From Roseivivax sp. GX 12232 (GTDB lineage: Bacteria; Pseudomonadota; Alphaproteobacteria; Rhodobacterales; Rhodobacteraceae), in the NCBI RefSeq assembly GCF_021272185.1, contig NZ_JAJSEC010000003.1, positions 310,001 to 374,000 of the forward strand: a stretch of DNA of 64,000 nucleotides, written 5' to 3'. Shown here piece by piece: positions 3,683-55,276 of the stretch. The notes under the pieces are model-generated. The model was not told the DNA's origin, did no database searches, and was given only the letters and a program-made list of their open reading frames with translations. Made by a program: the position numbers and the translations under genes. Within the stretch, counting starts at the first letter, position 1; the number at the start of each line of letters is the position of its first letter.

Positions 3683-3856
3683 GCAACAGAGGGCGCGCGC
3701 CGGACCGGGGGCCGGCGCTACTGACCTTGGGGCTATGCGCTTTATTTCCGCAAGGTCAGGGCTGGCTGCGAGCTATACACGCCATCCCAAGGAGCGCCGG
3801 CCCAAGGGGCCGGTCCGGCGCGCGCCCGGCACCTTCGGTGCTATTCGGGCGCAAGG
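3683..3856 (-). repeat. Dispersed composite palindromic element, copy 1
   Basis: A roughly 174-base intergenic element in reverse orientation relative to copies 3-5. One end carries the arm GGGCGCGCGCCGGACCGG followed by GGGCCGGCGCT. The other end carries AGCGCCGGCCCAAGGGGCC then GGTCCGGCGCGCGCCC and the signature CACCTTCGGTGCTATTCGGG. The two arms are inverted repeats of about 30 bases and enclose a core of about 85 bases. In this copy the core has its own inner inverted repeat, CTGACCTTG ... CAAGGTCAG (3721-3760). No T-run follows either arm, so it is not a simple terminator. Four other copies lie at 10265, 29747, 30058 and 55101. Confidence 0.85.
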
Positions 3857-3996
3857 GGGCGCGCGGGGTGTGGGTGGGGGCGGCTGGCCGCAGGTTGGTG
3901 ACAATGGGCGAGATTGGTTGAGCGGGGGGCGAGAGCGTCTATTGGGGGCTTGGGCACAAATTGGATGCTGGTGCTCGGAACCGTCGCGGCGCAATC

Positions 3997-4028
3997 CTCA
4001 CCAGCTCACCAGCTCACCAGCTCACCAG
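3997..4028. repeat. Octanucleotide tandem repeat, CTCACCAG x4
   Basis: Four perfect head-to-tail copies of CTCACCAG lie about 50 bases beyond the stop of the permease at 4078. The number of copies could vary by slippage. It is outside any recognised coding region. Confidence 0.9.
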
Positions 4029-4077
4029 CTGCACCACACCACACCTCCCTCAGCCCGCGCAGCCCAAGCCCCACACC

Positions 4078-4884
4078 TCACCGGATCAGGTTCATCCGCA
4101 GCTTCAGCCGGCTCCGCCGCCCGCTCGGCAGGTGGCGGTTCAGCCGCCGGTTCACGGCGCCGAAAAGCCCGATGATCACCAGGGTCAGCAGGATGAAATA
4201 GCCCGCCAGGATCGGGTAGGGCACGAAGGGGTTGAAGGTCTTGTCCGCGAAGTAATTCGCGTAATAGAGCGCGTCGCCCTTCTGCTGCCAGGCGGGAAAG
4301 CCCGAGAAGAAGACCAGCGTGGTCGCGTGGAACAGGAAGATCGCCTCGTTGGTATAGGCGGGCCAGGCCAGCCGCAGCATGGTCGGCCAGACGATCCGCC
4401 GGAAGCGCGGCGTGCCCGAGAGCCCGTAGGCATCGGCGGCCTCGAGGTCGCCCTTGGGTACCGACAGAAGCGCGCCGTAGAAGATCTCGCCGGAATAGGC
4501 GGCGGTGTTCAGGAACAGCACGATCGTCGCCCCGAGCCAGGCCGAGGAGAGCGGATCGAAGAAGGGCGCCACCGGTTTCAGCGCCAGGAAGCTGAAGTAG
4601 GCGAAGAAGAACTGGATGAAGAGCGGCGAGCCCCGGAAGACGAAGATGAACCACTCCGAGGGCTTGCGGATCAGCGGGTTGGGCGAGGCCTTGCCCACCG
4701 CCACGGCGGTGGCGAGGAAGAAGCCCAGGCTCAGCGCCACGATGCCGAAATAGACGTTCCAGATCAGCCCCGAGCCGATCAGCGTGAACTGCTGGCAGAG
4801 GGTGAAATCCGTGCGCGGCAGGAGCCGCTCGCCGATGCCGACCGACCGCAGCCCGTAGTCGAGGATGGTGTCGATGCAGCTCAT
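4078..4884 (-). CDS. Polar amino-acid ABC transporter permease (HisM/ArtM type)
   Basis: An inner-membrane permease of 268 residues with about five hydrophobic segments. It has the EAA loop expected in binding-protein-dependent permeases: EAADAYGLSGTPRFRRIVWP, about residues 150-170, which docks the ATPase. The His/Glu/Gln-type permease core (around LFIQFFFAYFSFLALKPV) is present. It is the last transporter gene of the cluster and pairs with the permease at 5069. The ATG at 4884 lies 184 bases after that gene, a wide gap that is GC-rich and apparently non-coding. Partner genes indicate uptake of a polar or cationic amino acid; the ligand cannot be told from sequence. Confidence 0.9.
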   Translation of the reverse strand: MSCIDTILDYGLRSVGIGERLLPRTDFTLCQQFTLIGSGLIWNVYFGIVALSLGFFLATAVAVGKASPNPLIRKPSEWFIFVFRGSPLFIQFFFAYFSFLALKPVAPFFDPLSSAWLGATIVLFLNTAAYSGEIFYGALLSVPKGDLEAADAYGLSGTPRFRRIVWPTMLRLAWPAYTNEAIFLFHATTLVFFSGFPAWQQKGDALYYANYFADKTFNPFVPYPILAGYFILLTLVIIGLFGAVNRRLNRHLPSGRRSRLKLRMNLIR

Positions 4885-5068
4885 GCCGAGGGGCCTTTCG
4901 CGGCGGTGCGGGGATGAAGGGTGAGTGCTTCAGAGAGGGCCGGAGCGGCGCGCAGCGCGGGCCCTTCGCCGGCGTGGGCCGCGGGGCGCGCCGCTCCGCA
5001 GCCAGCCCAAGCCGCCCGCACCTCAACCGGGCCCAGCCCCCGGACGCCGATACCAGTCACACCAACCC

Positions 5069-5950
5069 TCATGCGCCGGCCTTTCTCTGGGCCTCGCCCG
5101 CCAGCGTCGCCTGGCCGCGCGTCAGCCGCGCCATGATCCGGTCGAGCACCACTTCGGAGACCCGGGTGAAGGCCAGGTAGAAAACCAGGAGCGCCAGGAA
5201 ATACCACATCCGCCAGTCGCCATGGGGATAGTCGGTGAAGCGCGGCGTCTTGGCCGCGCCCAGCTCGCGGGCCCAGTAGACGATGTCTTCGATGCCCAGG
5301 AGGAACAGCAAGGGCGTCGCCTTGATCAGCACCATCCAGAGGTTCGACAGCCCGGGCAGCGCATAGACCCACATCTGCGGCACCAGGATGCGCCAGAAGG
5401 TCTGCCGCGGCGAGAGCCCGTAAGCCTCGGCGGTCTCGATCTGGGCATGCGGCACCGCGCGCATCGCGCCGTACAGCACATTGGCCGCGAAGGCGCCGAA
5501 GACGATGGCGAAGGTCAGCACCGCGACGAAGAAGCCGTAGGTCTCATGCACCCATTGCGGCGAGGTCGAGAGCGGCAGCTTGGCCTCGGCGCAGACGATG
5601 AAATCCGAGCCCTGGCGGATCGGCTCGTCCCAGTCGGGGCATTTGACCTGGTGGCGCAGCCATTCGAAGGCCTGGTCGAGCGCGATCACGAAGAACAGGA
5701 AGAAGGCGATGTCCGGCACGCCGCGCACCACCGCGATATAGCCGCGCCCGAACCAGGACAGCGGCCAGATCCGCGAGCGCGCCGCCGTGGCCCCGCCGAA
5801 GCCGAACAGGAGCGCCGTCGGCGCGGTAATCGCCAGGAGCAGAAGCACCGTCCCGACCGAGATATACAGCGAGATGTGCTTGCCCGTGGTCAGGTAGCAC
5901 ATGAGCCAGCTGAGGCCCTCGAGCACGCTCGGATCGGCGCAGGTCGGCAT
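5069..5950 (-). CDS. Polar amino-acid ABC transporter permease (HisQ/ArtQ type)
   Basis: The second permease, 293 residues, starts at the ATG at 5950. An EAA-loop motif IETAEAYGLSPRQTFWRILVP lies around residue 180. Hydrophobic segments flank it, and a larger periplasmic insert with two Cys (WLRHQVKCPDW ... VCAEAKLP) sits in the middle. It probably forms a heterodimeric channel with the permease at 4078, driven by the ATPase at 6802 and fed by the binding protein at 6043. The insert makes it longer than the typical 230-residue HisQ, a variation seen in the octopine/histidine-type family. Confidence 0.9.
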   Translation of the reverse strand: MPTCADPSVLEGLSWLMCYLTTGKHISLYISVGTVLLLLAITAPTALLFGFGGATAARSRIWPLSWFGRGYIAVVRGVPDIAFFLFFVIALDQAFEWLRHQVKCPDWDEPIRQGSDFIVCAEAKLPLSTSPQWVHETYGFFVAVLTFAIVFGAFAANVLYGAMRAVPHAQIETAEAYGLSPRQTFWRILVPQMWVYALPGLSNLWMVLIKATPLLFLLGIEDIVYWARELGAAKTPRFTDYPHGDWRMWYFLALLVFYLAFTRVSEVVLDRIMARLTRGQATLAGEAQRKAGA

Positions 5951-6042
5951 GACGTCTTCGGCTCGCTTGCGGGGGGTGGAGAAAACGGATCCGGGCGGGG
6001 CGGCGCGCGGCCTCTCCCCGCCCGGAGGATGGTCTCAGCGGA

Positions 6043-6771
6043 TCAGAACTTCGGGCTGTCCGCGCCGAGCCACTTCACGATCAGCTCGTTCAGCGTGCCG
6101 TCGTCCTTCATCGACTGGATCGCAGCGTCGAAGGTCTCGCGCATCTCGGGATCGCTCTCGCGGAAGGCCATGCCGATGCCGCCGCCGAGCGGGATGTCCT
6201 CGCCCACGAAGGTCATGTTGGCGTTTTCCTCGACCAGCGGGATCAGGAAGTCCTTGTCGGCCATGACCGCATCGGCCTCGCCCGACATGACCGCCGCGAT
6301 GGTCTCGTCCGGGGAGGGGAACTCGAGCAGGGTCGCGCCCGATTCGGCGATATGCGCGGCCTGGATGGTGCCGGTCTGCGCTGCCACGACGCCGCCTTCG
6401 ATGTCGGCATCCGCGGAAAGCGCGGCAAAGGCCGAGGGCGAGGGCGGGGTGTAGTTCTGGGTGAAGTCCACCACCTCGTCACGCTCGGGCGTGATCGACA
6501 TGCCGGCGATGATCGCGTCGTAGTTGCCCGATACGAGGTTGGGGATGATCGAATCCCAGTCGTTGGTCACCCACTCGCAGGTCATCTCGGCGCGGGCGCA
6601 AAGCTCGTCGCCCAGCTCGCGCTCGAAGCCCGCGACCTCGCCGTTGTCGTCGAGGAAGTTGTACGGAGGGTAGGCGCCCTCGGTGCCGAGCCGCACGACC
6701 GAATGGCTGGCCGCAAAGGCCGTGGCGGCCGAAAGGGTAAGCACCGCGGTGCCCAGAAGAAGCGATTTCAT
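6043..6771 (-). CDS. Periplasmic amino-acid binding protein (HisJ/ArtJ type)
   Basis: A 242-residue solute-binding protein, SBP_bac_3 family. It has a clear Sec signal peptide (MKSLLLGTAVLTLSAATAFA, cleavage near residue 20). The mature N-terminus VRLGTEGAYPPYNFLDDNGE is the standard ligand-pocket opening, and IIAGMSITPERDEVVDFTQNY carries the conserved Arg that binds the ligand carboxylate. The last residues KWLGADSPKF end the fold normally. It lies between the ATPase and the permeases, with 30 and 92 base gaps. It should bind a polar amino acid or amine-containing amino acid for the downstream ligase/hydrolase enzymes; the ligand is inferred. Confidence 0.92.
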   Translation of the reverse strand: MKSLLLGTAVLTLSAATAFAASHSVVRLGTEGAYPPYNFLDDNGEVAGFERELGDELCARAEMTCEWVTNDWDSIIPNLVSGNYDAIIAGMSITPERDEVVDFTQNYTPPSPSAFAALSADADIEGGVVAAQTGTIQAAHIAESGATLLEFPSPDETIAAVMSGEADAVMADKDFLIPLVEENANMTFVGEDIPLGGGIGMAFRESDPEMRETFDAAIQSMKDDGTLNELIVKWLGADSPKF

Positions 6772-6801
6772 TGCTGTATCTCCCTGATGTTCAGCGATGG
6801 G

Positions 6802-7578
6802 TCAGTCCTGCATGGTGGAGCTCAGAAAGCCCCGCAGCCTCTCGGATTTGGGCGCGCCGAAAAGCGCGTCCGGGGGGCCTTCTTCTTCGATGAGCCCCTG
6901 ATGAAGGAACACGACGTGGTCGGACACGTCACGTGCCATTTTCATGTCATGCGTCACGATCAGCATGGTCCGCCCCTCGGCGGCCAGGTCGCGGATCACC
7001 CGCACCACCTCCTGTTCGAGCTCGGGATCGAGCGCCGATGTCGGCTCGTCGAACAGAAGCGCCTCGGGTTCCATGCAGAGCGCGCGCGCGATGGCCGCGC
7101 GCTGCTGCTGCCCGCCCGAGAGCTGGGCGGGGTAGGCCTCGGTCTTGTCGCCGATGCCGACCTTCTCGAGGTAGCCGCGGGCGGCGGCCTCGACCTCGGC
7201 GCGGGGGCGGCCGAGCACGGTCAGCGGCGCCTCCATGACGTTCTGCAGGATGGTCATATGGGACCAGAGATTGAACTGCTGGAAGACCATCGAAAGATTG
7301 GTGCGGATGCGCAGCACCTGGCGGTTGTCGGCGGGCCGGCGGTCGTGGCCGCCGCCGCGCCAGCGCACCGGCTCGTCCTTGAAGAGGATCTCGCCCTCCT
7401 GGCTGTCCTCGAGCAGGTTGGCGCAGCGCAAAAGCGTCGACTTGCCGGAGCCCGAGGAGCCGATCAGCGACACGACATCGCCGCGGCGCGCCTCGATGTC
7501 GACGCCCTTGAGCACTTCCAGCGCGCCATAGGCCTTGTGCAGGTTGCGGATCGCGATGACGGGCGGCTGTTCGGTCAC
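6802..7578 (-). CDS. Polar amino-acid ABC transporter ATP-binding protein (HisP type)
   Basis: A 258-residue ATPase with Walker A GSSGSGKST, signature LSGGQQQRAAIARAL, Walker B ALLFDEPTSALD and a switch His in IVTHDM. The spacing QILRTNLSMVFQQFNLW-like (here LRIRTNLSMVFQQFNLW) is typical of HisP/GlnQ. The start is GTG at 7578, giving MTEQPPVIAIRNLHKAYG; there is no earlier ATG and only a weak ribosome site. It is the first gene of the transporter cluster, so the promoter should lie in 7579-7713. It energises the two permeases downstream. Confidence 0.93.
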   Translation of the reverse strand: MTEQPPVIAIRNLHKAYGALEVLKGVDIEARRGDVVSLIGSSGSGKSTLLRCANLLEDSQEGEILFKDEPVRWRGGGHDRRPADNRQVLRIRTNLSMVFQQFNLWSHMTILQNVMEAPLTVLGRPRAEVEAAARGYLEKVGIGDKTEAYPAQLSGGQQQRAAIARALCMEPEALLFDEPTSALDPELEQEVVRVIRDLAAEGRTMLIVTHDMKMARDVSDHVVFLHQGLIEEEGPPDALFGAPKSERLRGFLSSTMQD

Positions 7579-7713
7579 GGGGCTCTACGGGTCCTCGGCT
7601 GCGTCGGGTTGGCGCCGAAGATGGCTGAAACTGCCAAGGCTTTGCAACGCGAAAGCCGCGCCCCGGGCACTCCGGGGTGCGGTTGACCCAAGGTCAGGCG
7701 GCTTTTGCGCCCT

Positions 7714-8160
7714 TCAGCCGGTGCGCGCGGCCTGGGCGCGCTGCCGGGCGCGGGCGCTGTCGGGGTCGCTGATGCCCAGGAGATTCGCGACCATCCGCAG
7801 GAGCGAATCCTCCTCGGCGTCGCGTTTGCCGTCGGCCAGCACCACCGACCAGAGCGCCTCGACGACCTGGATCCGGTGCTCGTAGGGCACCGCGTCCTTG
7901 ATCGCGCGGGTGAAGCGCACGGTGTCCGGGGCCTCGGCCTCGAGCGCCTCGGCATCGGCGCGCAGCGCGCCCGCGGCCTCGGGGTCGAGCCCGTAGCGGG
8001 TGGCGAGGATGCGGTCGATCCGCTGCGCCTCGTCGGCGTCGAAATGGCCATCGGCGCGGGCGACGCGGACGAGCAGCGCCGTGAGCGCCAGCCGGGCGTC
8101 GCCGTCATCGAGCGGGGCAGGGTCGGGGCGGACCAGGCGGGAGAGGAAATCGCTGAACAT
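7714..8160 (-). CDS. TerB-family (tellurite resistance / DjlA-like N-domain) protein
   Basis: A 148-residue cytoplasmic all-helical protein. The pattern ALTALLVRVARADGHFDADEAQRI followed by SVVLADGKRDAEEDSLLRMVANLL gives two acidic DG repeats, the hallmark of TerB metal-binding folds. In many genomes such proteins are stand-alone and unconnected to tellurite. It uses the ATG at 8160. A probable diverged relative follows upstream at 8221-8628, in the same direction. Function beyond the fold is unknown. Confidence 0.82.
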   Translation of the reverse strand: MFSDFLSRLVRPDPAPLDDGDARLALTALLVRVARADGHFDADEAQRIDRILATRYGLDPEAAGALRADAEALEAEAPDTVRFTRAIKDAVPYEHRIQVVEALWSVVLADGKRDAEEDSLLRMVANLLGISDPDSARARQRAQAARTG

Positions 8161-8220
8161 GGGGCGAAGATAATCGCTTGGCGCGCGGATGCCAGCCCGG
8201 GGTCGCGGAGGCGCCCGCGA

Positions 8221-8628
8221 TCAGAGGCTGTGGGTCGGCACCGCCTCGAGCCCGAAGCGGGCGCTGAGGGTGCGCAGGACCGCCGGCGAGCCCGCGGGAT
8301 GGCGGCTCAGCTCCTCGGTCATGCAATCGGCCAGGAGCCGGCGCTCGCCCTCTGGCACATGGGCGACGATCAGCTGCGAGAGCCGCTCGCCCGAGGAGAC
8401 CGCCGCGGCCACCGCCTCGCAGGCGGCGCGCATCTCCGAGGCCTCGCGGCGGGTCAGGTCGAAGCGGCGCGCGAAGATCGTGTCGAGCTCGGGCCCCTTC
8501 AGCATGTCGCGCGGCAGGCTCTTGCGCGCGGCATCCACCGCCAGCGCGCCCAGCGCAAGCGGGGTGTCGGCGGGGTCGAGCCACGCCGCATGAGGGGCAT
8601 TCAGCCAGAGGACCAGGCGCTTCGACAT
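8221..8628 (-). CDS. Uncharacterised protein, possible degenerate TerB-like fold
   Basis: A 135-residue soluble protein starting at the ATG at 8628, chosen because GGGAGAA sits just upstream; the open frame extends to 8700 but without support. The stretch ELDTIFARRFDLTRREASEM ... RLSQLIVAHVPEGERRLLADCM can be laid against the TerB-like neighbour (RIDRILATRYGLDPEAAGAL ... RFTRAIKDAVPYEHRIQVVEAL). The acidic DG metal sites of that protein are missing here. I do not recognise a family with certainty. Gap to the TerB gene is 60 bases, so co-transcription is plausible. Confidence 0.6.
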   Translation of the reverse strand: MSKRLVLWLNAPHAAWLDPADTPLALGALAVDAARKSLPRDMLKGPELDTIFARRFDLTRREASEMRAACEAVAAAVSSGERLSQLIVAHVPEGERRLLADCMTEELSRHPAGSPAVLRTLSARFGLEAVPTHSL

Positions 8629-8800
8629 CGGTTCTCCCGCAGGGCTGCGGTGGCGGTTGAGCAACATTGACCACGCGCCGCCTATGGGGCGGCACGTCAC
8701 TCGGCACCCAATCGAGCGTGGCGAAGCGCAGGGCGCTTGTCTACGGGAAATGCGAATATGTTCGCCCGTGGAGCGGGTGCCCGCTGTGCTCGGGCAGGGC

Positions 8801-8967
8801 GGGGCGCTGCGGGGGGCTTGGGCGGGGGTGGCCGCGCCGGAGGGCGGGTGCCTTGCGGGCGCTGCGGGGGCATGTGCAGGGGGCTGCTGTCGCGGCAGGC
8901 GAGCCTCGCTGGGCGCTGCGGGAGGTCATATGCGGGAGGCTGCCGCCCCGGCGGGCCGGTGCCTCGC
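8801..8967. repeat. Degenerate 55-bp tandem repeat, three units
   Basis: The 12-mer GGGCGCTGCGGG recurs at 8802, 8857 and 8911, spacing 55 and 54 bases, and flanking bases such as GGCTGC and GTGCCT(T/C)GC recur in register. The array fills most of the 346-base gap between the gene at 8628 and rlmJ. The rest of the gap shows nothing recognisable. The G-rich strand could form G-quadruplexes. Confidence 0.65.
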
Positions 8968-8974
8968 GCCCCCG

Positions 8975-9745: not shown

Positions 9746-9789
9746 GGCCCGCGCCTTAGCGGCTTGTCGCAGGCTTGCCCAGAGCCATG

Positions 9790-10101: not shown

Positions 10102-10506
10102 GGAGGGGCTCCTTCGCTGGGGGTGTTGCAGGGCGAAGGGTAGCGCGGGGTGGCGCGCGGGGACATGGGGCGTGGTCGAGAGGTCCGGGTGGCGGTTGGC
10201 CCGCGCAGGGCGTGGCGACTGGGCCGCTCCGTCCCGCACCCGAGACCGGCCGCCCCGTTCCCGCCCCGAGCGGGTGCCGGGCCTGCGCCGGACCGGGGGG
10301 CTGGCGCCGCGCGGCCGGGGCGGGGCGCTTTATGGTGCAAGGTCAGGACACCGCCTGAGCGCCGCGCTGTCCGTCCCAAAGCGCCAGACCGGCGGGACCG
10401 GTCCGGCGCAGGCCCGGCACCTGCGGTGCTATTCGGGCCTTTGATAGATTTCTATTGCCTCAAAATGCCGATTTGGCGACCATCACGCATTATTTGGGAG
10501 ATTGCC
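10102..10506. other. Divergent intergenic region between cutA and a nuclease gene
   Basis: No gene is supported. It holds diverged copy 2 of the dispersed palindromic element (10265-10440). The final 65 bases before the GTG at 10507 turn abruptly AT-rich, which probably marks the promoter and the edge of acquired DNA. Confidence 0.6.
10265..10440 (-). repeat. Dispersed composite palindromic element, copy 2 (diverged)
   Basis: Same orientation as copy 1. Recognisable are GCGCCGGACCGGGGGGC (near 10287), GCGCTTTATGGTGCAAGGTCAGG in the core (10326-10348, compare GCGCTTTATTTCCGCAAGGTCAGG in copy 1), GACCGGTCCGGCGCAGGCCC (10397 on) and the end signature CACCTGCGGTGCTATTCGGG. Many substitutions separate it from the other copies. 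It ends about 65 bases upstream of the nuclease gene. Confidence 0.7.
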
Positions 10507-11550
10507 GTGTCTTTAGATCAATTGCTTTCCTCTCTTTCAGAGAGAGTCCGCGAACATGCTTCCGCCATCGCCACGGAAGAAGCCGCCAAAACCTCCATCA
10601 TTCTGCCGATGCTGCAAGGGCTGGGATATGACGTATTCAATCCCGCCGAGGTGGTTCCCGAGTTCACTGCCGACACTCCCGGCAAGAAAGGGGAAAAGGT
10701 CGATTACGCGGTGGTTCTGGATGGAGAGGTGCGCATTCTGATCGAGGCCAAGGGCCTTCAGACCAAGCTAGAGCAGAAACACCTCGGCCAGCTCTATCGC
10801 TATTTCTCGGTGACCAATACGCGGTTCGCCATTCTCACCAATGGTCAGGTCTACCAGTTCTTTTCCGATCTGGAAGAACCCAACAAACTGGACTCCCGGC
10901 CCTTCTTCACATTCGATCTTCTCGATTTCGGTCCCAACAAGATTGCGGAGCTTCGCAAGTTCGAGCGGTCCAACTTCGACGTGGACAAGATATTGGCCAA
11001 TGCGGAGAAACTGAAATACGTCTCGGCGATTAAGGCTTTCCTCGCCGAGGAGCTGGACGATCCCAGCGAGGATTTCGTGAAGCTTGTCGCATCGAAGGTC
11101 TATGACGGACGCATTTCCGCAAGCGTTCGGGAAATGGTCGGCTCTGCCATCAGGGCGGCCTTCAACGATCTCGTCAGAGATGGGGTCCGCAATCGGCTCA
11201 GCACAGCCTTGAATGACGACACCACGGAAGAGGACCTGCCCGAGGTCGAACCGGGTTCGGACATCGTCACCACCCAGGAAGAGATCGAGGGGATGCTGAC
11301 GATCCGTGCCATTGTCCGGGATGTGATCGACGCCGGGCGGGTCGATCTCAGAGACGCCAAGTCATACTGCGCGGTGTTGGTCGATGCGAACAACCGCAAG
11401 CCCCTTGCCCGGCTGCATCTCAACCGGAAGCAATGGTATGTCGGGCTGTTCGACACCGAGAAGGAAGAGCGCGTTCCAATCGAGTCGTTGAACGATCTCT
11501 TCGCGCACTCGGAACGGCTGCGGGCTACGGCGGCGCGTTACACCGCCTAG
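10507..11550 (+). CDS. Stand-alone HsdR N-terminal-type (PD-(D/E)XK) nuclease
   Basis: A protein of 347 residues with a restriction-type nuclease domain at the N-terminus. The core VDYAVVLDGEVRILIEAK gives Asp67, Glu80 and Lys82, followed by Gln95 in QLYRYF and NTRFAILTNGQVYQFF, which matches the D-ExK-Q pattern of type I R-subunit N-domains. There is no helicase motor, methylase or specificity subunit nearby. Residues 190-347 are helical then a small C-terminal domain of unknown role. GTG at 10507 is chosen for the GGGAG seven bases ahead and because homologues usually begin with SLDQL-like sequence; an ATG at 10465 is possible. Third positions are visibly more AT-rich than in neighbours, suggesting transfer. 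It may be a defence or DNA-repair nuclease; the role is inferred. Confidence 0.85.
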   Translation: MSLDQLLSSLSERVREHASAIATEEAAKTSIILPMLQGLGYDVFNPAEVVPEFTADTPGKKGEKVDYAVVLDGEVRILIEAKGLQTKLEQKHLGQLYRYFSVTNTRFAILTNGQVYQFFSDLEEPNKLDSRPFFTFDLLDFGPNKIAELRKFERSNFDVDKILANAEKLKYVSAIKAFLAEELDDPSEDFVKLVASKVYDGRISASVREMVGSAIRAAFNDLVRDGVRNRLSTALNDDTTEEDLPEVEPGSDIVTTQEEIEGMLTIRAIVRDVIDAGRVDLRDAKSYCAVLVDANNRKPLARLHLNRKQWYVGLFDTEKEERVPIESLNDLFAHSERLRATAARYTA

Positions 11551-11556
11551 CACCAC

Positions 11557-13200: not shown

Positions 13201-13393
13201 ATGCCGCTTACCCCCGCGATTTGCCCCAATTCTCGAGCGATGAGAGGCGCATTTTCGCCCCACCCGCGGCCCGCTCGGACCGCAGCATCACGGGATTTAG
13301 ATGATATGAGATTCGCGCCCGTAACACAAGACGACCGCAAGATGCTGTTGCGGCCCGATGGGCGCCCTCAATGTTTGGTGCGGTGACCTCCGC

Positions 13394-29375: not shown

Positions 29376-29746
29376 GGTTCTGTCTCCTCCTTCGGGTGAC
29401 CCGGGGTCACTTGGGTTGGTGCCGCAGAGGTATCCCGAGCGCGCGCCCGGGCCGGTCACGATCGGGTGATACCTGTCGCGCGCGATGGAAATTCGGGGGT
29501 GGGGGCAGGGTTGGAGCTGGAGAAGGCAGGGCGCAGTGGGGCTGGCCCGAGAGAGGGCTGGGCAGGTCATGCCGCCACAAAGCGACCCGCAGCCGCAGTT
29601 CTTGCCGCATTTCGCCCACCTCCGTAGCTCTTCCCAGCCAACCCCAACCAATCGGCCCAAGATCGCATGCCTCCTTCCGCACCCACCAAGCATTCGCCCA
29701 GCCCCACGCGCCTTCCGAAGACACCGCCATCGCCTTCGCGCCTCCT

Positions 29747-29921
29747 TGCGCCCGAATAGCACCGAAGGTGCCGGGCGCGCGCCGGACCGGCCCGATGGGC
29801 CGGCGCTCTTTCGGGCGGTGCGCTTAGCTATCCCCTCGTCCTGACCTTGCAGCCATAAAACGCTTCGCTCAGAGGCCAGCAGCGCCGGCCCCCGGTCCGG
29901 CGCGCGCCCTCTGTGGCGAGG
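29747..29921 (+). repeat. Dispersed composite palindromic element, copy 3
   Basis: Begins with TGCGCCCGAATAGCACCGAA then GGTGCCGGGCGCGCGCC and GGACCGGCCCGATGGGCC. The core includes GTGCGCTTAGCT and CCTGACCTTGCAGCCATAAA. It ends with CAGCGCCGGCCCCCGGTCC then GGCGCGCGCCCTCTG. The left arm carries about six extra bases relative to the right arm, so the terminal inverted repeats are imperfect. Same orientation as copies 4 and 5. Confidence 0.87.
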
Positions 29922-30057
29922 AGGGCGCGCGGGGGCGGGGCTGCTTGACGAGACGGGGGTGCTGCCCTCGGGGGCGTTTCTTCGTGGTTGCCCCGATATT
30001 TCAAGCACACCACCACTCTGCCGTCGTTTTCCCCGAACTTCGACACTGATGCACCTC

Positions 30058-30234
30058 CTTGCGCCCGAACAGCATCAAAGATGCCGGGCGCGCGCCGGAC
30101 CGGCCCCTTGGGCCGGCGCTCCTTGGGATGGTGTGCTTAGCTCTACGCTAGTCCTGACCTTGCTGGGATAAAACGCTTCGCTCAGAGGCCAGCAGCGCCG
30201 GCCCCCGGTCCGGCGCGCGCCCTCTGTTGCGAGG
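30058..30234 (+). repeat. Dispersed composite palindromic element, copy 4
   Basis: Begins CTTGCGCCCGAACAGCATCAAAG, differing by a few bases from copy 3, with CGGCCCCTTGGGCCGGCGCT in the left arm. The core has GGTGTGCTTAGCTC and CCTGACCTTGCTGGGATAAA, then CGCTTCGCTCAGAGGCCAGC, identical to copy 3. It ends GCGCGCGCCCTCTGTTGCGA. It lies 136 bases beyond copy 3 in the same orientation. Confidence 0.87.
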
Positions 30235-30431
30235 GGTGGAGAGGAGGATTGGGTGGAGAGGGAAGGCCAAATTGGCAGATTGACCGCTGTGCCACTGAAG
30301 GGCCAAAGGGTAGCGCTGAGGGCCGCGCGATAGGGCGGTGAAGGGCAAGGCCGAGTGCGACGCCACGGGATCGTCGAAGCGCGGGACGGGGCGCCGCGCA
30401 CAGGAGGCCCGAAGCTTATGACCGGGCACGG

Positions 30432-30540
30432 TGCCACGGGGACGTCAAAGGGTCAGGCCGAGTGCCGGGCCACAGGCCAGCCAAAGCGCAGGACCAAGCG
30501 CCCCGCCACAGGCCAGCCAATGCGCTTCGCAGACGCGCGA
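30432..30540. repeat. 36-bp tandem repeat before nadD
   Basis: CCACAGGCCAGCCAA occurs at 30470 and 30506, exactly 36 bases apart, and a diverged unit (GCCACGGGGACGTCAAAG) precedes it at 30433. The sequence is not recognisably coding. Confidence 0.65.
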
Positions 30541-30661
30541 TCCGGCCCATCCGCCCCCAACAGCGCCCAAGTGCCAGCCCGCCCGCCGCCTTACCTCCCA
30601 ACCCCGCCCAACCTCCCCCAACACATTGCCTTTCCCCGCAATCCGGTGTTTCACCCCTCCC

Positions 30662-41644: not shown

Positions 41645-42095
41645 GGGCGGGGGCCTCCTTGCTCGAAGGCTAGACTTGCGGTCGCGCGCGGCGGAATCAA
41701 GGCCGGGCGGGGCGGTTCCTTCGGGTCTTGCGCTCTGTCTATCGGGGTCTTTGCGCTTCGGGGCAAGGCGCCGGACGGGCATCGAGCCCGCCCGGCGCCT
41801 CCGAGAGCGCTGCTCTCGGGCTCTCGGAGTATTTGGGGCCCGGTCAGGCCTGGGGGGCGGGGGCTCTGGGGTGTTTGGGTGGCGCGCCGTGCCGGGGCGT
41901 GGTGTTTTTTGGTGGGGCAAGGCGCCGGGCGGGCATCGAGCCCGCCCGGCGCCTCCGAGAGCTCTGCTCTCGGGCTCTCGGAGTATTTGAGGCCCGGTCA
42001 GGCCTGGGGGTGGTGGCTCTGGGGTGTCGGGGGTGGTGCGCCGTGCCGGGCGGGCTGTGTTTGCGTGGGATGCGCTGGGCGGTTTGGTGGTCGGG
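41645..42095. other. Intergenic region between uvrB and the SCO gene
   Basis: Gene-free. Most of it is a 154-bp direct duplication (41761-42068). The first 115 bases should hold the uvrB promoter, but no clear boxes are seen. Confidence 0.6.
41761..42068 (-). repeat. 154-bp tandem duplication with two hairpins per unit
   Basis: Unit A (41761-41914) and unit B (41915-42068) each hold a hairpin GCGCCGGGCGGGC-ATCGA-GCCCGCCCGGCGC (one mismatch in unit A), then CTCCGAGAG ... CTCTCGGAG, then GTATTTG and GGCCCGGTCAGGCCTGGGG. Both lie downstream of the leftward SCO gene and could act as terminators or RNA-protecting structures. GAGTATTTG-type sequence resembles palindromic intergenic elements I recall from Rhodobacterales. 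Confidence 0.88.
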
Positions 42096-45408: not shown

Positions 45409-49035
<3,627 letters not shown>

Positions 49036-49172
49036 GCCTAGCTCCTCAATGAGTATTCACCGACAAATCGTTGACAAAATATAGGTGTCTGGTCAAGCTT
49101 CCCGCATCCGGGCCAAGGGCGGCAGGTCCGGGGCTGCCAAAAGCCGCCCGCACAACAACAGGGAAATCCGCA
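49036..49172. promoter_or_regulatory. Divergent promoter region of oxoprolinase and TRAP operon
   Basis: The AT-rich part holds TTGACA (49071-49076, a possible + strand -35). GACAAA is repeated at 49062 and 49073, 11 bases apart, which could be a regulator site, perhaps for the MarR-like protein at 52075. No good -10 is seen, so this is tentative. Confidence 0.3.
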
Positions 49173-50153: not shown

Positions 50154-50222
50154 CGGACCTTCGGGCGCGGCGGGGCCTGGCGTCCCGCCGCATCCGTCCA
50201 TTCCCAACCGAAGGGGCACGAC

Positions 50223-50774
50223 ATGCGCCGATTGCTCGACCGCATCTACGACCTCGCGCTGTGGCTGGCGGCGCTGACCTTCGCGCTGATCGCCGTCTTG
50301 GTGCTCGCGCAGATCCTCGGACGGCTGACCGACCGGGCGGCCCGCGCGCTGGCGCTGCCGCCGCCGGGGCTGACGGTGCCCTCGCTGGCCGAGTTCGGGG
50401 CCTTCCTCTTTGCCGGCGCGGTCTTCCTCGGCCTCGCGGGCACGCTGCAGGCGGGCGGCCACGTCCGTGTGAAACTGCTGATCACCGCGCTGCCCGAGAC
50501 CGCGGCGCGCTGGCTCGGGGCCGCGGTCGCGGGCGGGGCTGCGGCGCTGGCCGGTTTCGCCACCTGGTCGAGCCTCCTGCAGGCGCTCGACAGTCTGAAA
50601 TTCAACTCGGTCAGCTACGGCGTCGTGCCGATCCCGCTGGTGATCCCGCAGGGGGTGATGACGCTGGGGCTCGCGCTGTTCACGCTGGCGATCCTCGACG
50701 CGATGGTCACCCAGATCCGCGGCGGCACGCCCGCCCATGACGCGGCCGAGGTCAAGGACGGGGGCAAGTCCTGA
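50223..50774 (+). CDS. TRAP transporter small permease (DctQ type)
   Basis: A 183-residue membrane protein with four helices. LALWLAALTFALIAVLVLAQ opens it; the conserved EFGAFLFAGAVFLGLAGTLQ AGGHVRV block, in which the R/K after H is typical, follows. It links the binding protein to the large permease. A GGGG-rich site precedes the ATG at 50223. Its stop overlaps the large permease start by one base (TGATG). Confidence 0.92.
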   Translation: MRRLLDRIYDLALWLAALTFALIAVLVLAQILGRLTDRAARALALPPPGLTVPSLAEFGAFLFAGAVFLGLAGTLQAGGHVRVKLLITALPETAARWLGAAVAGGAAALAGFATWSSLLQALDSLKFNSVSYGVVPIPLVIPQGVMTLGLALFTLAILDAMVTQIRGGTPAHDAAEVKDGGKS

Positions 50775-52078
50775 TGGAAATCGCAACGCTCGCGCCGCTC
50801 CTGGTGGTGGTTCTTTTCGGCGCGCTGGCGCTGGGCCTCTGGGTCGGTTTCGCGCTGATCGCGGTGGGGCTGGTGGCCATGCTGGCCGCCGCCTCGGCAC
50901 CGCCGAGCCTGGTCTTCGCCACCAAGGTCTGGGGCGGGCTGACCGTCTGGGACCTGACCGCGCTGCCGATGTTCATCTGGATGGGCGAGATCCTGGTGCG
51001 ATCCCGGCTCTCCTCGGACATGTTCTCGGGCCTCGCGCCCTTCACCGCGAAGCTGCCCGGGCGGCTTCTGCATGTGAACGTCATGGGCTGCGCGCTGTTT
51101 GCCGCGGTCTCGGGCTCCTCGGCGGCGACCACGGCGACCATCGGGCGGATGTCGCTGCCCGAGCTGAAAGCGCGCGGCTATGACGACGCCATGGCGATCG
51201 GCACGCTGGCGGGCTCGGGCACCTTCGGCTTCCTGATCCCGCCCTCGATCATCCTGATCGTCTACGGCGCCGCCACCGAGCAATCCATCGCCCGGCTGTT
51301 CCTCGCGGGCGTGGTGCCCGGCTTCATGCTGGCGGCGCTCTTCGGCGGCTACATCATGCTCTGGTCGCTTTTGAACCGCAGCCGCATGCCCGAAGCCGAA
51401 CCCGCCGTCGACCGGCGCGAGGCGCTGGGCGCCGCCGCCCGGCTTCTTCCGGTGCTGGGTCTGATCGTGGCGGTGATCGGCTCGATCTACCTTGGCATCG
51501 CGAGCCCCACCGAGGCCGCCGTCATCGGCGTCACCGGCGCGCTGATCCTGGCCGCCGTGACCGGCGCGATGAGCTTCCGCGGTTTCTTCGACTCGCTCCG
51601 GGCCGCGACGATCACCACCTGCATGATCGCCTTCATCCTGGCCGGGGCCTCCTTCCTGACGGTCGCCATGGGCTACACCGGCATCCCGCGCGAACTGGCG
51701 CGGCTGATCGGCGACATGGGGCTGTCGCCCTATGCGCTGCTCGCGATGCTGACGGTCTTCTTCATCGTCATGGGGATGTTCCTCGACGGGATCTCCATCG
51801 TGGTGCTGACGGTCTCGATCATCCTGCCGATGGTGGTGGGCGCGGGCATCGACCCGATCTGGTTCGGGATCTTCCTGGTGCTGGTCGTGGAGATGAGCCA
51901 GATCACCCCGCCGGTGGGCTTCAACCTCTTCGTGATCCAGACCATCACCGGGCGGGACATCTTCACCGTGGCGCGTTACGCCGCGCCCTTCTTCCTGCTT
52001 CTGGTGCTGGCGGTGGCGATCCTTTCGGCCTTCCCGGGGATCGCGCTCTGGCTGCCCGGGACGATGCTGTCACGATGA
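50774..52078 (+). CDS. TRAP transporter large permease (DctM type)
   Basis: A 434-residue membrane protein with about twelve helices. SSAATTATIGRMSLPELKAR, LAGSGTFGFLIPPSIILIVY (the GxxxPPS motif) and MSQITPPVGFNLFVIQTITG are the DctM signatures. It uses the sodium or proton gradient to move the substrate. The start overlaps dctQ by one base, and its stop overlaps the MarR-like gene by four (ATGA), so all are coupled. Confidence 0.94.
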   Translation: MEIATLAPLLVVVLFGALALGLWVGFALIAVGLVAMLAAASAPPSLVFATKVWGGLTVWDLTALPMFIWMGEILVRSRLSSDMFSGLAPFTAKLPGRLLHVNVMGCALFAAVSGSSAATTATIGRMSLPELKARGYDDAMAIGTLAGSGTFGFLIPPSIILIVYGAATEQSIARLFLAGVVPGFMLAALFGGYIMLWSLLNRSRMPEAEPAVDRREALGAAARLLPVLGLIVAVIGSIYLGIASPTEAAVIGVTGALILAAVTGAMSFRGFFDSLRAATITTCMIAFILAGASFLTVAMGYTGIPRELARLIGDMGLSPYALLAMLTVFFIVMGMFLDGISIVVLTVSIILPMVVGAGIDPIWFGIFLVLVVEMSQITPPVGFNLFVIQTITGRDIFTVARYAAPFFLLLVLAVAILSAFPGIALWLPGTMLSR

Positions 52079-52602
52079 GCGCCGAGGGCAAGAAGACGGG
52101 CATCGGCCCGGTCGTGAGCTCGGCCCATCTGGCGGCCTCGGGCATGCCCGAGCTGTCCGAGGTCGAATACGCGCTGACCATGGCCAACCACGCCTTCCAG
52201 CGTTGGATCGTGCGCTGCATGGATGCCGCGGGCGCGCCGGGCATGGCGCCGCTCGAGGTGCTGATCCTGCACCTGGTGAACCACCGCGACCGGGCCAAGA
52301 CCCTGGGCGACATCCGGCTGGTCCTGCACGTCGAGGACGCGCATCTGGTCAGCTACGCGGTGCGCAAGCTGTCCGAGCGCAAGCTGGTGGTCACCGCCCG
52401 GCAGGGCAAGGAAAAGGCCGTGGAGATCACCGAGGAGGGCGCCGCCCTCTGCGCCCGCTACGCCGAGGTGCGCGAGGCGCTGCTGGTCGATCTCGCCCGG
52501 GAGAACGGCTTCCGCCCCGAGGAGATGTCGCGGCTGGCCGCCCTCCTGCGGGCGCTCTCGGGCAGTTACGACCACGCCGCGCGGGCGGCGACCACGCTTT
52601 GA
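52075..52602 (+). CDS. MarR-like winged-helix regulator
   Basis: A 175-residue DNA-binding protein. The winged-helix region is MAPLEVLILHLVNHRDRAKT, LGDIRLVLHVEDAHLVSYAV then RKLSERKLVVTARQGKEKAV, with the beta-wing VEITEEGAALCARYAEV. It overlaps the TRAP large permease by ATGA and so is the operon's own regulator. It probably controls the TRAP operon and perhaps the divergent oxoprolinase; the ligand is inferred to be their substrate. Confidence 0.85.
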   Translation: MSAEGKKTGIGPVVSSAHLAASGMPELSEVEYALTMANHAFQRWIVRCMDAAGAPGMAPLEVLILHLVNHRDRAKTLGDIRLVLHVEDAHLVSYAVRKLSERKLVVTARQGKEKAVEITEEGAALCARYAEVREALLVDLARENGFRPEEMSRLAALLRALSGSYDHAARAATTL

Positions 52603-53519
52603 GGGCGCTGGCCGCGCTGGCGGGCTGGGGGCGCTGGCTCCTGATCGCGGGGCTGGTGGCGGGCACGCTTCTGCCCGGGCTGGCGCGGGCCTTCGCCCCG
52701 GCAATCGTGCCGCTTTTGGCGGTGCTCCTCTGCCTCGCCGGCCTGCGCGAGGGGCCGCGCGCCGCGCTGCCCGCACGGGCGGGGCTGCGCTCCGGCCTGA
52801 CCGCCACGCTGGCGCTGCAGTTCGCGCTGCCGCTCCTGGCGGGGGCCGCGCTTTGGGCCGGGGGGCTTCTGGATGCGCCGCTCGCGCTGGCCGCGCTTCT
52901 GGTCTTTGCCGCAGCCCCGATCACCGGGGCGCCGGGGCTCGCGGTCATGTCCGGGGCGGATGCGGGCGCGGCGCTGCGCCAGCTGACGCTGGGCACCGCG
53001 CTTCTGCCGCTGACGGCGCTGCCGGTCTTCGCGCTGCTGCCGGTCTTTCCCGACCCCATGGCGGTCTTCGGCGGGGCGCTGCGGCTCCTTTTGCTGATCG
53101 CGCTGGCGGTGGGGCTGGCGGGGCTCCTGCGCCGCGTCCTCCCGGCGCTGAGCCGCCCCGAGGCGCGCCCGGCGATCGACGGGGCCATGGCGCTGGCCAT
53201 GGCGCTGGTCGTCGTGGGCCTGATGTCGGCGCTGGCCCCGGCCGCGCGCGATGCGCCGGGGGCCCTGGCGCTGACCTTCCTGTTTGCCTGGGCGCTCTAC
53301 CTCGCCCAGAGCCTCGGCGCCTGGCGCATCGGGCGGCGTCTGACCGCGAAAACCGAGGCCCGGGCCTTCGCGATCTCGGCGGGCAACCGCAACCTCGCGC
53401 TCTTCCTCGCGGCGATCCCGCCCGAGATGGCCGCGCCCTTCATGGTCTTCATCGGCTGCTACCAGGTGCCGATGTATCTCACGCCCCTGGTGCTGCCGCG
53501 GCTGACGGGCCGGGGCTGA
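52599..53519 (+). CDS. Bile-acid:sodium symporter-like (BASS) membrane protein
   Basis: A 306-residue protein with about nine hydrophobic segments. FAISAGNRNLALFLAAIP near residue 260 resembles the second crossover of BASS carriers, and the first half has VFAAAPITGAPGLAVMSGAD. The start is read as TTG at 52599, which overlaps the MarR-like stop (TTGA); no better start is near. It would be coupled to the regulator. The substrate could be an organic anion; no ligand is evident. Its last 41 bases overlap the convergent BNR-repeat gene. Confidence 0.75.
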   Translation: MRALAALAGWGRWLLIAGLVAGTLLPGLARAFAPAIVPLLAVLLCLAGLREGPRAALPARAGLRSGLTATLALQFALPLLAGAALWAGGLLDAPLALAALLVFAAAPITGAPGLAVMSGADAGAALRQLTLGTALLPLTALPVFALLPVFPDPMAVFGGALRLLLLIALAVGLAGLLRRVLPALSRPEARPAIDGAMALAMALVVVGLMSALAPAARDAPGALALTFLFAWALYLAQSLGAWRIGRRLTAKTEARAFAISAGNRNLALFLAAIPPEMAAPFMVFIGCYQVPMYLTPLVLPRLTGRG

Positions 53520-54657
53520 AGGCCTCGACGCAGAGCACCGTCGGCAGGTGGCGGGCGATCTCCTCCCAGCTCTCGCCGCCGTCGCGGCTGCCGAAGACCG
53601 AGCCCGAGTTGGTGCCGAAATAGACCCCGGGGTCGGCCTCGCGGTCGGTCGCCATGGCCTGGCGCAGGACGGTGAAGAAGCAGTCGCGCTCGGGCAGGCC
53701 GACCTGGCGCGGGCTCCAGCTCGCGCCGCCGTCCGAGGTCTTCCAGACCTTGGCCGAGGCGCCGGGCGGGAAGCGCCCCTCCATGTCGCCGTTGAGCGGC
53801 AGCACCCAGGCGGTCTCGGGGTCGGCGGGATGCACTGCGATCGGAAAGCCGAAGGTCGAGGGCAGGCCCGCGCCCGCCTCCTCCCAGGAGCGGCCGCCGT
53901 CGGCGGAACGGAAGGTGCCATGGTGGTTCTGCTGCCAGATCACGTCGCCCGCCGCCGAGGGCGCCCGCACCATGTTGTGCACGCAGAGGCCGATCTCCTC
54001 GGGGCTGCCCGCCGCCGGGTGGCCCGAGGTCGCCGCGGGGGTGTTGGCCCGCCGCACCCGCCGGTCCCAGGAGGCGCCGCCGTCCTCGCTGGCGAAGACG
54101 CCCGCGGCGGAGATGCCGACCCAGAGCTTCTCGGGGGCGCGCGGGTCGCTGAGGATCGTGTGCAGGGTCAGCCCGGCGGCCCCCGGCGCCCAGTCCTTGG
54201 CGGTCGGATGCTCGGTCAGCGCCTCGAGCGCGGTCCAGCTCGTGCCGCCGTCGGTGCTTTTGGCCAGCGTCGCGGGCTTGGCCCCGGCGTAGAGCGTGCC
54301 CTGGCTGTAGTGCAGCGACCAGATCGCATCGAGGCTGTCGCCGAAGGGCGCGTCCTCGGCGGGCGCCTGGCCGAAGAAGGCGCGCATCTCGGGGTCATTG
54401 GCGAGCCAGGTGTCGATCTCGCCGCGCGAGAGCTTGGTGAGGGTCCATGTTGCGCCGCCGTCCTCGGAGCGGAAGACGCCCGCGCCGTGGAAGTCGTTGC
54501 CGCCCCCGGCCCAGAGCGTCCCGCCCTCGGCGTCGCCCGCCATGTGGTTGATCGGCCAGCCGTCGCAATGCGGCCCGCTCACGGACCAGGCGGCGCGGTC
54601 CTCGGAGGTGAGGATGAAGGCGCCCTTGGTGGTGCCGACGAGAAGATGGAATGCCAT
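53479..54657 (-). CDS. BNR/Asp-box repeat beta-propeller protein
   Basis: A 392-residue protein with six Asp-box motifs of the S/T-x-D-G-G-x-[ST]-W type: SEDGGATW, STDGGTSW, SEDGGASW, SADGGRSW, TSDGGASW and SRDGGESW. This is a propeller fold related to sialidases, but the arginine triad of true sialidases is not evident. There is no export signal, so it is probably cytosolic. The start is the ATG at 54657. It is convergent with the BASS-like gene, overlapping by 41 bases. Confidence 0.87.
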   Translation of the reverse strand: MAFHLLVGTTKGAFILTSEDRAAWSVSGPHCDGWPINHMAGDAEGGTLWAGGGNDFHGAGVFRSEDGGATWTLTKLSRGEIDTWLANDPEMRAFFGQAPAEDAPFGDSLDAIWSLHYSQGTLYAGAKPATLAKSTDGGTSWTALEALTEHPTAKDWAPGAAGLTLHTILSDPRAPEKLWVGISAAGVFASEDGGASWDRRVRRANTPAATSGHPAAGSPEEIGLCVHNMVRAPSAAGDVIWQQNHHGTFRSADGGRSWEEAGAGLPSTFGFPIAVHPADPETAWVLPLNGDMEGRFPPGASAKVWKTSDGGASWSPRQVGLPERDCFFTVLRQAMATDREADPGVYFGTNSGSVFGSRDGGESWEEIARHLPTVLCVEAFSPGPSAAAAPGA

Positions 54658-54906
54658 GGCAGCGCCTCCCCGGGGTGGTTCGGCGCGAGGGTAACACGGG
54701 GTGTGCCGGGGGAGGGCGGGAAAATGGGGGGGCTTAGTTGGAAGGTGGGGCTGGAGAGCTGGGCGTTGGGGTTCGAGGACTGGTCGTTGGGGTTGGGAGC
54801 GGCTGGGGCAGGTGAGCTGGAAGGGGAGCGTGCGGGCGGATTGGGGCTTGTGCCGTTATCGATGGGTCATCGGGCCCAATGTCGCCGCGCATCAGACCGC
54901 CTCAAC

Positions 54907-55085
54907 CCACCATCAGAGACGCACCGCACTTATCACCCGAGACACACCACACCTGCCACCCGGCACACACGACGCCGTCCACCCGACACATCTCACACGG
55001 GCCACCCGACACGCACGACGCCCGCCACCTGACAAACCCCACACCTGCCACTCGACAGGCTCTACACTCACCACCGCGCACAACG
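54907..55085. repeat. 23-bp tandem repeat, six units in strict register
   Basis: Units start exactly at 54933, 54956, 54979, 55002, 55025 and 55048, each beginning (T/C)CAC(C/T)(C/T)G(A/G), with diverged partial units at both ends. The period is not a multiple of three, and no unique spacers separate the units, so it is a minisatellite and not a coding repeat or CRISPR array. Confidence 0.85.
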
Positions 55086-55100
55086 CTGGGACAACGCCCT

Positions 55101-55276
55101 TCTTGCGCCCGAATAGCACCGAAGGTGCCGGGCGCGCGCCGGACCGGCCCCTTGGGCCGGCGCTCCTTGGGGTGGCGTGCCTAGCTCACAGCGAGCAATG
55201 ACCTTGCAGCCATAAAGTGCGCAGCCCAGAGGTCAGAAGCGCCGGCCCCCGGTCCGGCGCGCGCCCTCTGGCGGGA
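55101..55276 (+). repeat. Dispersed composite palindromic element, copy 5
   Basis: Begins TTGCGCCCGAATAGCACCGA then AGGTGCCGGGCGCGCGCCGG and ACCGGCCCCTTGGGCCGGCG, as in copy 1 reversed. The core has GGTGGCGTGCCTAGCTC, ACCTTGCAGCCATAAAG and CCCAGAGGTCAGAAGCGCCG. It ends GGCCCCCGGTCCGGCGCGC then GCCCTCTG. It lies between a 23-bp and a 41-bp array. Confidence 0.87.

What the first reader, a model, noticed from the sequence alone, without database searches (positions are those of the whole stretch)
3683..55276. Five copies of a 175-bp composite palindromic element
The element occurs at 3683, 10265, 29747, 30058 and 55101, always intergenic, in both orientations. The ends share CGCCCGAATAGCACCGAAGG and GCGCGCGCCCTCTG, flanked by inverted GC-rich arms of about 30 bases. 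The shared core has CCTGACCTTG and AAACGCTTCGCTCAGAGGCC. No reading frame is conserved and no T-run follows. This looks like a mobile or RNA-forming repeat family specific to this lineage. At five copies in 64 kb, hundreds per genome are possible. Copy 2 is much more diverged, so ages differ.
Basis: partly seen in the sequence, partly recalled or inferred. Interest (0 to 1): 0.78.

Follow-up and report, generated by a model that had tools for sequence, protein, structure and literature searches.

The report
Family-wide intergenic hairpin repeat in Rhodobacteraceae
The five copies belong to a large, apparently undescribed family of folded, non-coding DNA repeats that sits between genes in roughly half of the sampled Rhodobacteraceae bacteria, has multiplied to about two hundred copies in this genome, and appears to be kept in shape by natural selection, a Rhodobacteraceae counterpart of the ERIC and REP repeats of gut bacteria.

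Summary
In detail: five copies of one ~165-bp element, intergenic, both orientations, no T-run, no reading frame. The genome (a Roseivivax by inference) has 233 matches to its 26-base hairpin, the reversed control none. It is not confined to this lineage: a covariance model finds it in 141 of 295 family genomes and 143 of 244 of the order sample, but in none of the 288 other genomes of the class sample. Hairpin and long stem show compensatory change (15 of 29 pairs); a competing local fold covaries too. Among 76 own copies the left arm diverges 0.5%, the loops about 20%. At sites shared between species the element is conserved while flanks are not. Of 15 sites shared by two sister species 4 carry it in opposite orientation; 9 further sites have it in one species only. 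No Y1 transposase in nine Roseivivax genomes, no target duplication, no Rfam match. Best reading: an ERIC-like, non-autonomous mobile repeat under structural selection, mobiliser unknown. Copies inside essential operons argue against a strong terminator.

The parts
3687..3851 (-). copy 1, expanded own-genome subfamily
   Evidence: CM hit 144.5 bits; alignment
10275..10439 (-). copy 2, older subfamily; elements sit at the same locus (near cutA and pyrG) in two sister species
   Evidence: CM hit 123.9 bits; nearest relative L091:1795-1960 at 82% and conserved flanking genes
29749..29913 (+). copy 3, expanded subfamily, first of a tandem pair
   Evidence: CM hit 143.7 bits
30062..30226 (+). copy 4, expanded subfamily, second of the tandem pair (313 bases further)
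   Evidence: CM hit 146.8 bits; hairpin 1 is the T-A variant
55106..55270 (+). copy 5, expanded subfamily
   Evidence: CM hit 142.8 bits
29751..29776 (+). hairpin 1 of copy 3: inner stem GCACC/GGTGC (29759-29763 with 29767-29771), an AATA bulge on its 5' side, CCCG/CGGG on either side
   Evidence: C-G to T-A switch in 15 of 76 own copies
29773..29790 (+). left arm of the long stem in copy 3
   Evidence: pairs with 29892-29909; 9 of the 17 pairs of this helix change on both sides across 28 copies
29800..29806 (+). inner arm of copy 3; pairs with 29882-29888, or, in the competing fold, with the left arm
29840..29863 (+). conserved core CCTGACCTTG...CATAAAACGC enclosed by the stem
   Evidence: its two blocks diverge 3.7-4.5% among 76 own copies (four bases between them 28%), against 17-21% in the loops beside them; ATAAAGCGC shared across genera
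29892..29909 (+). right arm of the long stem in copy 3

Best explanation
It is a non-autonomous, dispersed, structured repeat of the ERIC/REP kind, found in Rhodobacteraceae: a bulged 5' hairpin followed by a long imperfect stem that encloses a conserved core. Shown: the structure is kept by compensatory change, the copies examined are intergenic, copy number varies greatly, some sites have an element in one sister species and not in the other, and at conserved sites arms and core stay while the flanks drift away. Inferred: copies spread through the hairpin and the inverted arms, recognised as single-stranded or cruciform DNA by a trans-acting enzyme that I did not identify, in bursts in some lineages; resident copies are transcribed with their neighbours and fold into a stable RNA hairpin that affects processing or stability of mRNA, which is why arms and core are selected in place. 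The inverted arms would also let recombination swap or turn round a copy at a fixed site.
For: Structure: 15 of 29 pairs (hairpin 1 and long stem) with two-sided change, 96.3% of cells paired, covariation 0.226 against 0.066 in shuffles and at most 0.040 in slid controls. A second hairpin-1 form in two sister species keeps its bulge while stems covary (20 distinct rows, 96.9% paired, covariation score reached by 0 of 500 shuffles). Selection: divergence among 76 own copies 0.5% left arm, 0.4% inner arm, 1.9% right arm, 3.3% hairpin 1, against 21% and 18% in loops and 28-38% just outside; one hairpin-1 pair is C-G in 58, T-A in 15 and other in 3 of 76, and T-A copies do not cluster significantly (P 0.18). 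In place: pheS-pheT copies of three species, arms and hairpin 93-97%, loop and core 71-77%, flanks 33-45% identical; copy 2 against its counterpart 94%, 66%, 36%. Mobility: 233 hairpin matches here; 0 to 150 CM hits among the nine genus genomes, own included, 150 being the scoring cap; nine sites with an element in one sister species only; two sites with one copy in one species and two in the other. All 53 pattern-found copies with a called gene on both sides overlap no called gene.
Against: No mobilising enzyme and no target duplication were found, so transposition rests on copy number and presence/absence. The one-sided sites are not clean insertions: most of the intergenic region differs, opposite L090 stands unrelated sequence, and opposite L093 about 44 bases of one end remain. 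No transcript data. Orthology of copies at shared sites is uncertain: at least 4 of 15 carry different arm types in the two species. In genus g44 the single hit is at pheS-pheT in three species examined but elsewhere in a fourth. MFE of shortened copies is unremarkable against shuffles in two of three (z -0.6, -1.5, -2.6).
Confidence: 0.58

Rival explanations
1. A host-owned regulatory or boundary module (RNA or DNA) rather than a mobile repeat: kept where a family-specific protein or RNase must bind, its number following host need.
For: Conservation in place and within the genome; the pheS-pheT interval holds an element in two genera with the same orientation but different arm types; 159 bases between two anchors in 71 of 81 own matches.
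Against: 0 to at least 150 hits among genus genomes, no common function among the neighbours of four low-copy genomes, no hit in 154 of 295 family genomes (strict filter and at most 9 candidates scored per genome).
Confidence: 0.2
2. A transcription terminator acting in both directions, possibly with Rho, that insulates neighbouring genes.
For: Convergent gene pairs are enriched: 12 of 37 element-bearing regions against 31 of the other 288 in the same sample, Fisher p 0.001; divergent pairs are not significantly depleted, p 0.33. In this genome both approaches to the element have C over G in 38 of 53 copies.
Against: No T-run. The C-rich approach is absent in relatives: 4 of 33 copies in two sister species, 1 of 13 in R. 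sediminis, control 6 of 25. Copies sit between pheS and pheT and between ribosomal L23 and L2 genes, which are usually co-transcribed (recalled).
Confidence: 0.1
3. A decaying MITE derived from a classical DDE transposon, without function.
For: Inverted arms, size, intergenic place, high number in some genomes.
Against: Arms and core do not decay with the loops, no target duplication in 76 copies, structure covaries across genera.
Confidence: 0.08
4. A REPIN mobilised by a RAYT (TnpA-REP) transposase.
For: Bulged 5' hairpin, intergenic, high copy.
Against: No PF01797 match in any of 9 genus genomes, while 5 of 14 control genomes ring; no constant GTAG or CGTC tag at the ends.
Confidence: 0.04

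Closest known systems
ERIC (enterobacterial repetitive intergenic consensus)
   Same: Single long stem-loop of similar size, mostly intergenic, taxon-wide, strongly varying copy number (passages of PMC2267715 and PMC10969869); no known mobilising gene (recalled)
   Different: Other bacterial family; an extra bulged 5' hairpin and a competing local fold of the arms; sequences were not compared
REP/BIME and REPIN with RAYT
   Same: Bulged hairpin, intergenic, clusters, high copy (recalled)
   Different: No Y1_Tnp match in the genus, no constant GTAG/CGTC tag (tags from PMC3733652, one section read), a long-range stem
Correia/NEMIS and other bacterial MITEs
   Same: Inverted arms, intergenic, RNA hairpin possible (passages of PMC10969869, partly recalled)
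   Different: No target duplication, arms do not decay with the loops
[quoted passage not shown]
   Same: Intergenic repeat of an alphaproteobacterium (name seen in PMC10969869; the rest recalled)
   Different: 0 of 76 own copies hold GANTC, though the second hairpin-1 form of two sister species contains GAATC
HRC-8-4 RNA motif of Rhodobacterales
   Same: Structured motif confined to the order (PMC8632094, section read)
   Different: Sits mainly between the cco operons and ends in a U-run terminator; ours is dispersed and has no T-run

Membership tests
ERIC-like structured interspersed repeat (as a kind) | imperfect palindrome able to fold into one long stem, shared across a bacterial family | tested here: met
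ERIC-like structured interspersed repeat (as a kind) | intergenic location, variable copy number | tested here: met
ERIC proper | homologous sequence | not tested
   no ERIC sequence was compared; only the kind is claimed
REPIN/RAYT | RAYT (Y1_Tnp) gene in the genome | tested here: not met
   0 of 9 genus genomes, PF01797; control rings in 5 of 14
REPIN/RAYT | GTAG or CGTC tag beside the hairpin | tested here: not met
   a tag or its complement within 12 bases upstream in 3 of 76, downstream in 6 of 76 copies
MITE of a DDE transposon | terminal inverted repeats | tested here: met
   arms pair
MITE of a DDE transposon | target-site duplication | tested here: not met
   76 copies, highest z 3.4 in 1452 tests; old copies could have lost it, and the ends of the unit are not certain
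MITE of a DDE transposon | autonomous element with the same ends | not tested
   no search for such an element was made
CIR | CcrM sites (GANTC) inside (recalled) | tested here: not met
   0 of 76 own copies; present in the second hairpin-1 form of two sister species
intrinsic terminator | T-run after the hairpin | tested here: not met
   0 of 76 on either strand
any Rfam 15 family | covariance-model match | tested here: not met
   window at gathering cut-off: tRNA only; 29650-30300 at E up to 5: none

The most novel reading that the evidence does not exclude
A family-wide, host-maintained nucleic-acid module with two competing folds: hundreds of intergenic copies under purifying selection are recognised by one Rhodobacteraceae-specific factor, the arms co-evolve with it lineage by lineage (both arms change together), and sites stay occupied while the individual element is swapped or turned round. 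That would be a genome-scale distributed regulon or chromosome-organising element that grew from a mobile repeat.
Probability: 0.2. Interest if true: 0.82.

Novelty: new variant of a known kind. Interest (0 to 1): 0.6.

Why it matters
Rhodobacteraceae are abundant, much-studied marine bacteria (recalled), yet nine searches of the open-access library and Rfam showed no description of this family; subscription papers were not searchable. It offers a natural experiment: genomes with one hit, tens and hundreds, and sister species with shared, missing and oppositely oriented copies, so that spread, selection and function of ERIC-like repeats become testable in one group.

Tried and rejected
RAYT partner: not found in the genus. 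Plasmid or phage carriers: copy 3 has no blastn match in either collection; but the Roseivivax sediminis copy L034 matches 151 bases of a Salipiger plasmid at 68.9% over the element (E 1e-6), so plasmid copies exist; the other match of that call, Pseudorhodobacter, lies in the flank. Inverted repeats as the cause of the skewed flanks: spacers fold no better than block-shuffled ones (mean z -0.40; control regions -0.90). Rho-type bidirectional terminator: the C-rich approach was not seen in three relatives. Common neighbour gene in four low-copy genomes: none. Target duplication: none. HRC-8-4 motif: different. The first count of the local fold had its brackets one column off and was redone; only one search is used. 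Of 81 anchored own matches 5 were dropped: they pair an extra upstream left hairpin with the right arm of the next copy. Two further own copies found by the model (L065:10452-10616 and one cut at the end of L062) are not in the context counts. In the sister-species comparison, loci whose partner was not found and L108/L143 (18.6 bits in the partner) were left out.
Full report
What is there. The five copies of the finding are real and fall at 3687-3851 (-), 10275-10439 (-), 29749-29913 (+), 30062-30226 (+) and 55106-55270 (+). Apart from weaker opposite-strand matches of the same copies, nothing else in the window scores above 23.6 bits. All lie between genes called by a codon-usage script of mine. 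The window belongs to genome G000 (4.12 Mb, 38 contigs). The genus is Roseivivax by inference: a congener, G301, has a contig of 318,859 bases with a copy that reads the same as the one in Roseivivax sediminis NZ_FOMS01000005.1, of the same length.

Copy number. The 26-base hairpin, up to 3 mismatches, occurs 121 times forward and 112 times reverse in the genome, and the reversed control 0 times. In 50 fetched own-genome loci and the window I anchored 81 matches; 71 have exactly 159 bases between the anchors, 5 have 158 or 160, and the other 5 are extra left hairpins lying upstream of a full copy. Tandem pairs about 250 to 370 bases apart are common.

Anatomy. An alignment of 28 copies from this genome and relatives gives a 5' hairpin with a bulge (CCCG-AAYA-GCACC-GAA-GGTGC-CGGG), a long stem of two helices (17 and 7 pairs) enclosing a conserved core (GATAAAGCGC), and short tails. 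Of 31 pairs predicted by RNAalifold, 15 have two-sided changes. Counted for the named structure without two short inner pairs: 29 pairs, 15 with two-sided change, 96.3% of cells paired, covariation 0.226 against 0.066 in shuffles, reached by none of 500 shuffles, slid controls at most 0.040. The left arm can instead pair locally with the region just after it; this competing fold (with hairpin 1 and a local right hairpin, 20 pairs) is 95.9% paired with covariation 0.145 against 0.068 in shuffles. The two folds share the left arm and exclude each other; they are not independent evidence, and I cannot say which forms. In two sister species a second form of hairpin 1 (GCGCGG-AATCAA-stem-loop-stem-G-CCGCGC) has covarying stems (20 distinct rows, 96.9% paired, 4 of 13 pairs with two-sided change). 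Folding energies of three shortened copies are z -0.6, -1.5 and -2.6 against shuffles, so the case for structure rests on covariation.

Who has it. Family sample: 141 of 295 genomes, each of a different genus, at E 1e-5, with at most 9 candidates scored per genome. Order sample: 143 of 244 genomes, 73 of 101 genera; every listed positive is of the same family. Class sample: 1 of 289, that one being G000; three of the listed negatives are of the same family. So in these samples the repeat is confined to one bacterial family and is far from specific to this lineage.

Selection. Among 76 own copies mean pairwise identity is 0.837, but divergence from consensus is 0.5% in the left arm, 0.4% in the inner arm, 1.9% in the right arm, 3.3% in hairpin 1, 3.7-4.5% in the two core blocks (28% in four bases between them), 15% in the arm loop, 21% and 18% in the two large loops and 28-38% immediately outside. 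A freely decaying repeat would not show this. In hairpin 1 the second pair from the loop is C-G in 58, T-A in 15 and something else in 3 copies; the T-A copies are not significantly closer to each other in the rest of the element (5 of 15 nearest neighbours, expected 2.8, P 0.18), so the switch has probably happened repeatedly or been spread by conversion.

Fixed sites. In three species of another genus (g44) with a single hit each, the element lies between pheS and pheT in matching places; arms and hairpin are 93-97% identical, loop and core 71-77%, flanks 33-45%. A species of a further genus has an element with a different, paired arm type in the same interval and orientation. A fourth g44 species, G603, has its single hit elsewhere, in the ribosomal L23-L2 interval, which also holds an element in two g295 species and in G213, not all in the same place or orientation. 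Copy 2 of the window has counterparts at the same locus in two sister species (same flanking genes, same orientation); against one of them arms are 94%, loop and core 66%, flanks 36% identical. The other four window copies belong to the subfamily that expanded in this genome.

Turnover. G299 and G302 are sister species, 82-92% identical in aligned blocks. I fetched 20 loci from each plus one 20-kb stretch each, and then partner stretches predicted from synteny or by search. Fifteen intergenic sites have an element in both; in 4 of the 15 it is in opposite orientation (L092/L112 second copy, L096/L122, L107/L129, and L100/L141, where the partner scores only 38.9 bits). L097/L125 counts as shared on a 19.6-bit remnant. 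Nine sites have a detectable element in one species only (L090, L093, L095, L105, L110, L115, L119, L123, L125 first copy). Loci whose partner I could not find, and one ambiguous site, were left out. At least four shared sites carry different arm types in the two species (L101/L124, L102/L121, L106/L120, and the L092/L112 second copy), so some opposite orientations are replacements rather than simple inversions. The one-sided sites are not clean: most of the intergenic region differs, opposite the L090 copy stands unrelated sequence that looks coding by eye, and opposite L093 about 44 bases of one end remain. So sites persist while elements come, go and are swapped; the inverted arms offer a route, which I have not shown.

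Context. In the 394-kb own sample (the window plus 20 stretches chosen to contain hits, so not random) 55 full copies were found by pattern; 53 have a called gene on both sides and none of these overlaps a called gene. They lie in 37 large intergenic regions: 22 between tandem genes, 12 convergent, 3 divergent, against 233, 43 and 49 among all 325 neighbouring pairs; convergent pairs are enriched (p 0.001), divergent ones not significantly depleted (p 0.33). Element strand shows no preference relative to tandem genes (15 same, 17 opposite). Neighbours in four low-copy genomes are UvrB and NDUS4, LepA and a pyridoxamine oxidase-like protein, PurA and a nitrile hydratase-like protein, ribosomal L2 and an AAA protein. 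In L156 and L157 the element follows the L23 gene and precedes the L2 gene by about 1.8 kb without a called gene between; in L152 and L077 other called genes lie in the interval.

How it most likely works. The kind of thing is clear: a structured interspersed repeat like ERIC. That it spreads rests on copy number and presence/absence (shown); the agent is unknown. RAYT is excluded for the genus as far as PF01797 can tell, and no target duplication was found in 76 copies. That resident copies matter to the host is suggested by conservation in place (shown); that they act as RNA is inferred from position between co-directional genes and from compensatory changes, which DNA hairpins would show too. 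Termination is unlikely to be the main role: no T-run, presence inside essential operons, and the C-rich approach seen in this genome was absent in three relatives.

Novelty. Rfam has no match. Nine literature searches of the open-access library found no description; subscription papers were not searchable. Passages of PMC2267715, PMC10969869 and PMC2864571, one section and passages of PMC3733652, and two sections and passages of PMC8632094 were read; all other papers were seen as search listings only. I rate it a new variant of a known kind.

Noticed in passing
window 29376-30661, 54658-55660 and 35 other own-genome intergenic regions (loci L054-L073): In this genome most stretches between a gene and an element, or between two elements, run from G-rich to C-rich whatever the gene orientation (gene-side GC skew +0.28 at 3' ends, +0.34 at 5' ends; element-side -0.26 and -0.12; between copies +0.27 then -0.27). 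It is weak in 63 control regions (quarter means +0.02 to -0.08; convergent ones reach -0.22 at one end), was not seen around copies of three relatives and is not an inverted repeat. Unexplained.
   Followed up: partly
window 41760-41856 and 41914-42010: Two 97-base copies, 97% identical, starting 154 bases apart, of another hairpin-rich repeat.
   Followed up: no
L028:1833: A copy whose interior is gone so that the left arm runs straight into the right arm, as if deleted between short repeats in the two arms.
   Followed up: no
L057 around 10692-10899: A short tandem array of left-hairpin units about 73 bases apart beside a full copy.
   Followed up: no
L039:4344-4436 (Roseivivax sediminis by inference): A shorter variant with the hairpin and closing arms but without the usual core.
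   Followed up: no
right of L091:1795-1960 and L092:3917-4080: Sequences like CGTCATCCTCGGGCTCGACCCGAGGA, which resemble CGTC-tagged REPs (resemblance by eye; tag from PMC3733652), lie beside some copies.
   Followed up: no
L152, L156, L157, L077: In several genera the interval between the ribosomal L23 and L2 genes is opened by roughly 1.3 to 4.5 kb that include this element.
   Followed up: partly
L158:4025-4190: In another genus an element sits directly beside pyrG, the gene near copy 2 of the window, in the opposite orientation.
   Followed up: no
NZ_CP014598.1:227770-227920 (Salipiger plasmid): A 68.9% match over the element of Roseivivax sediminis, so the repeat probably also sits on plasmids.
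   Followed up: no
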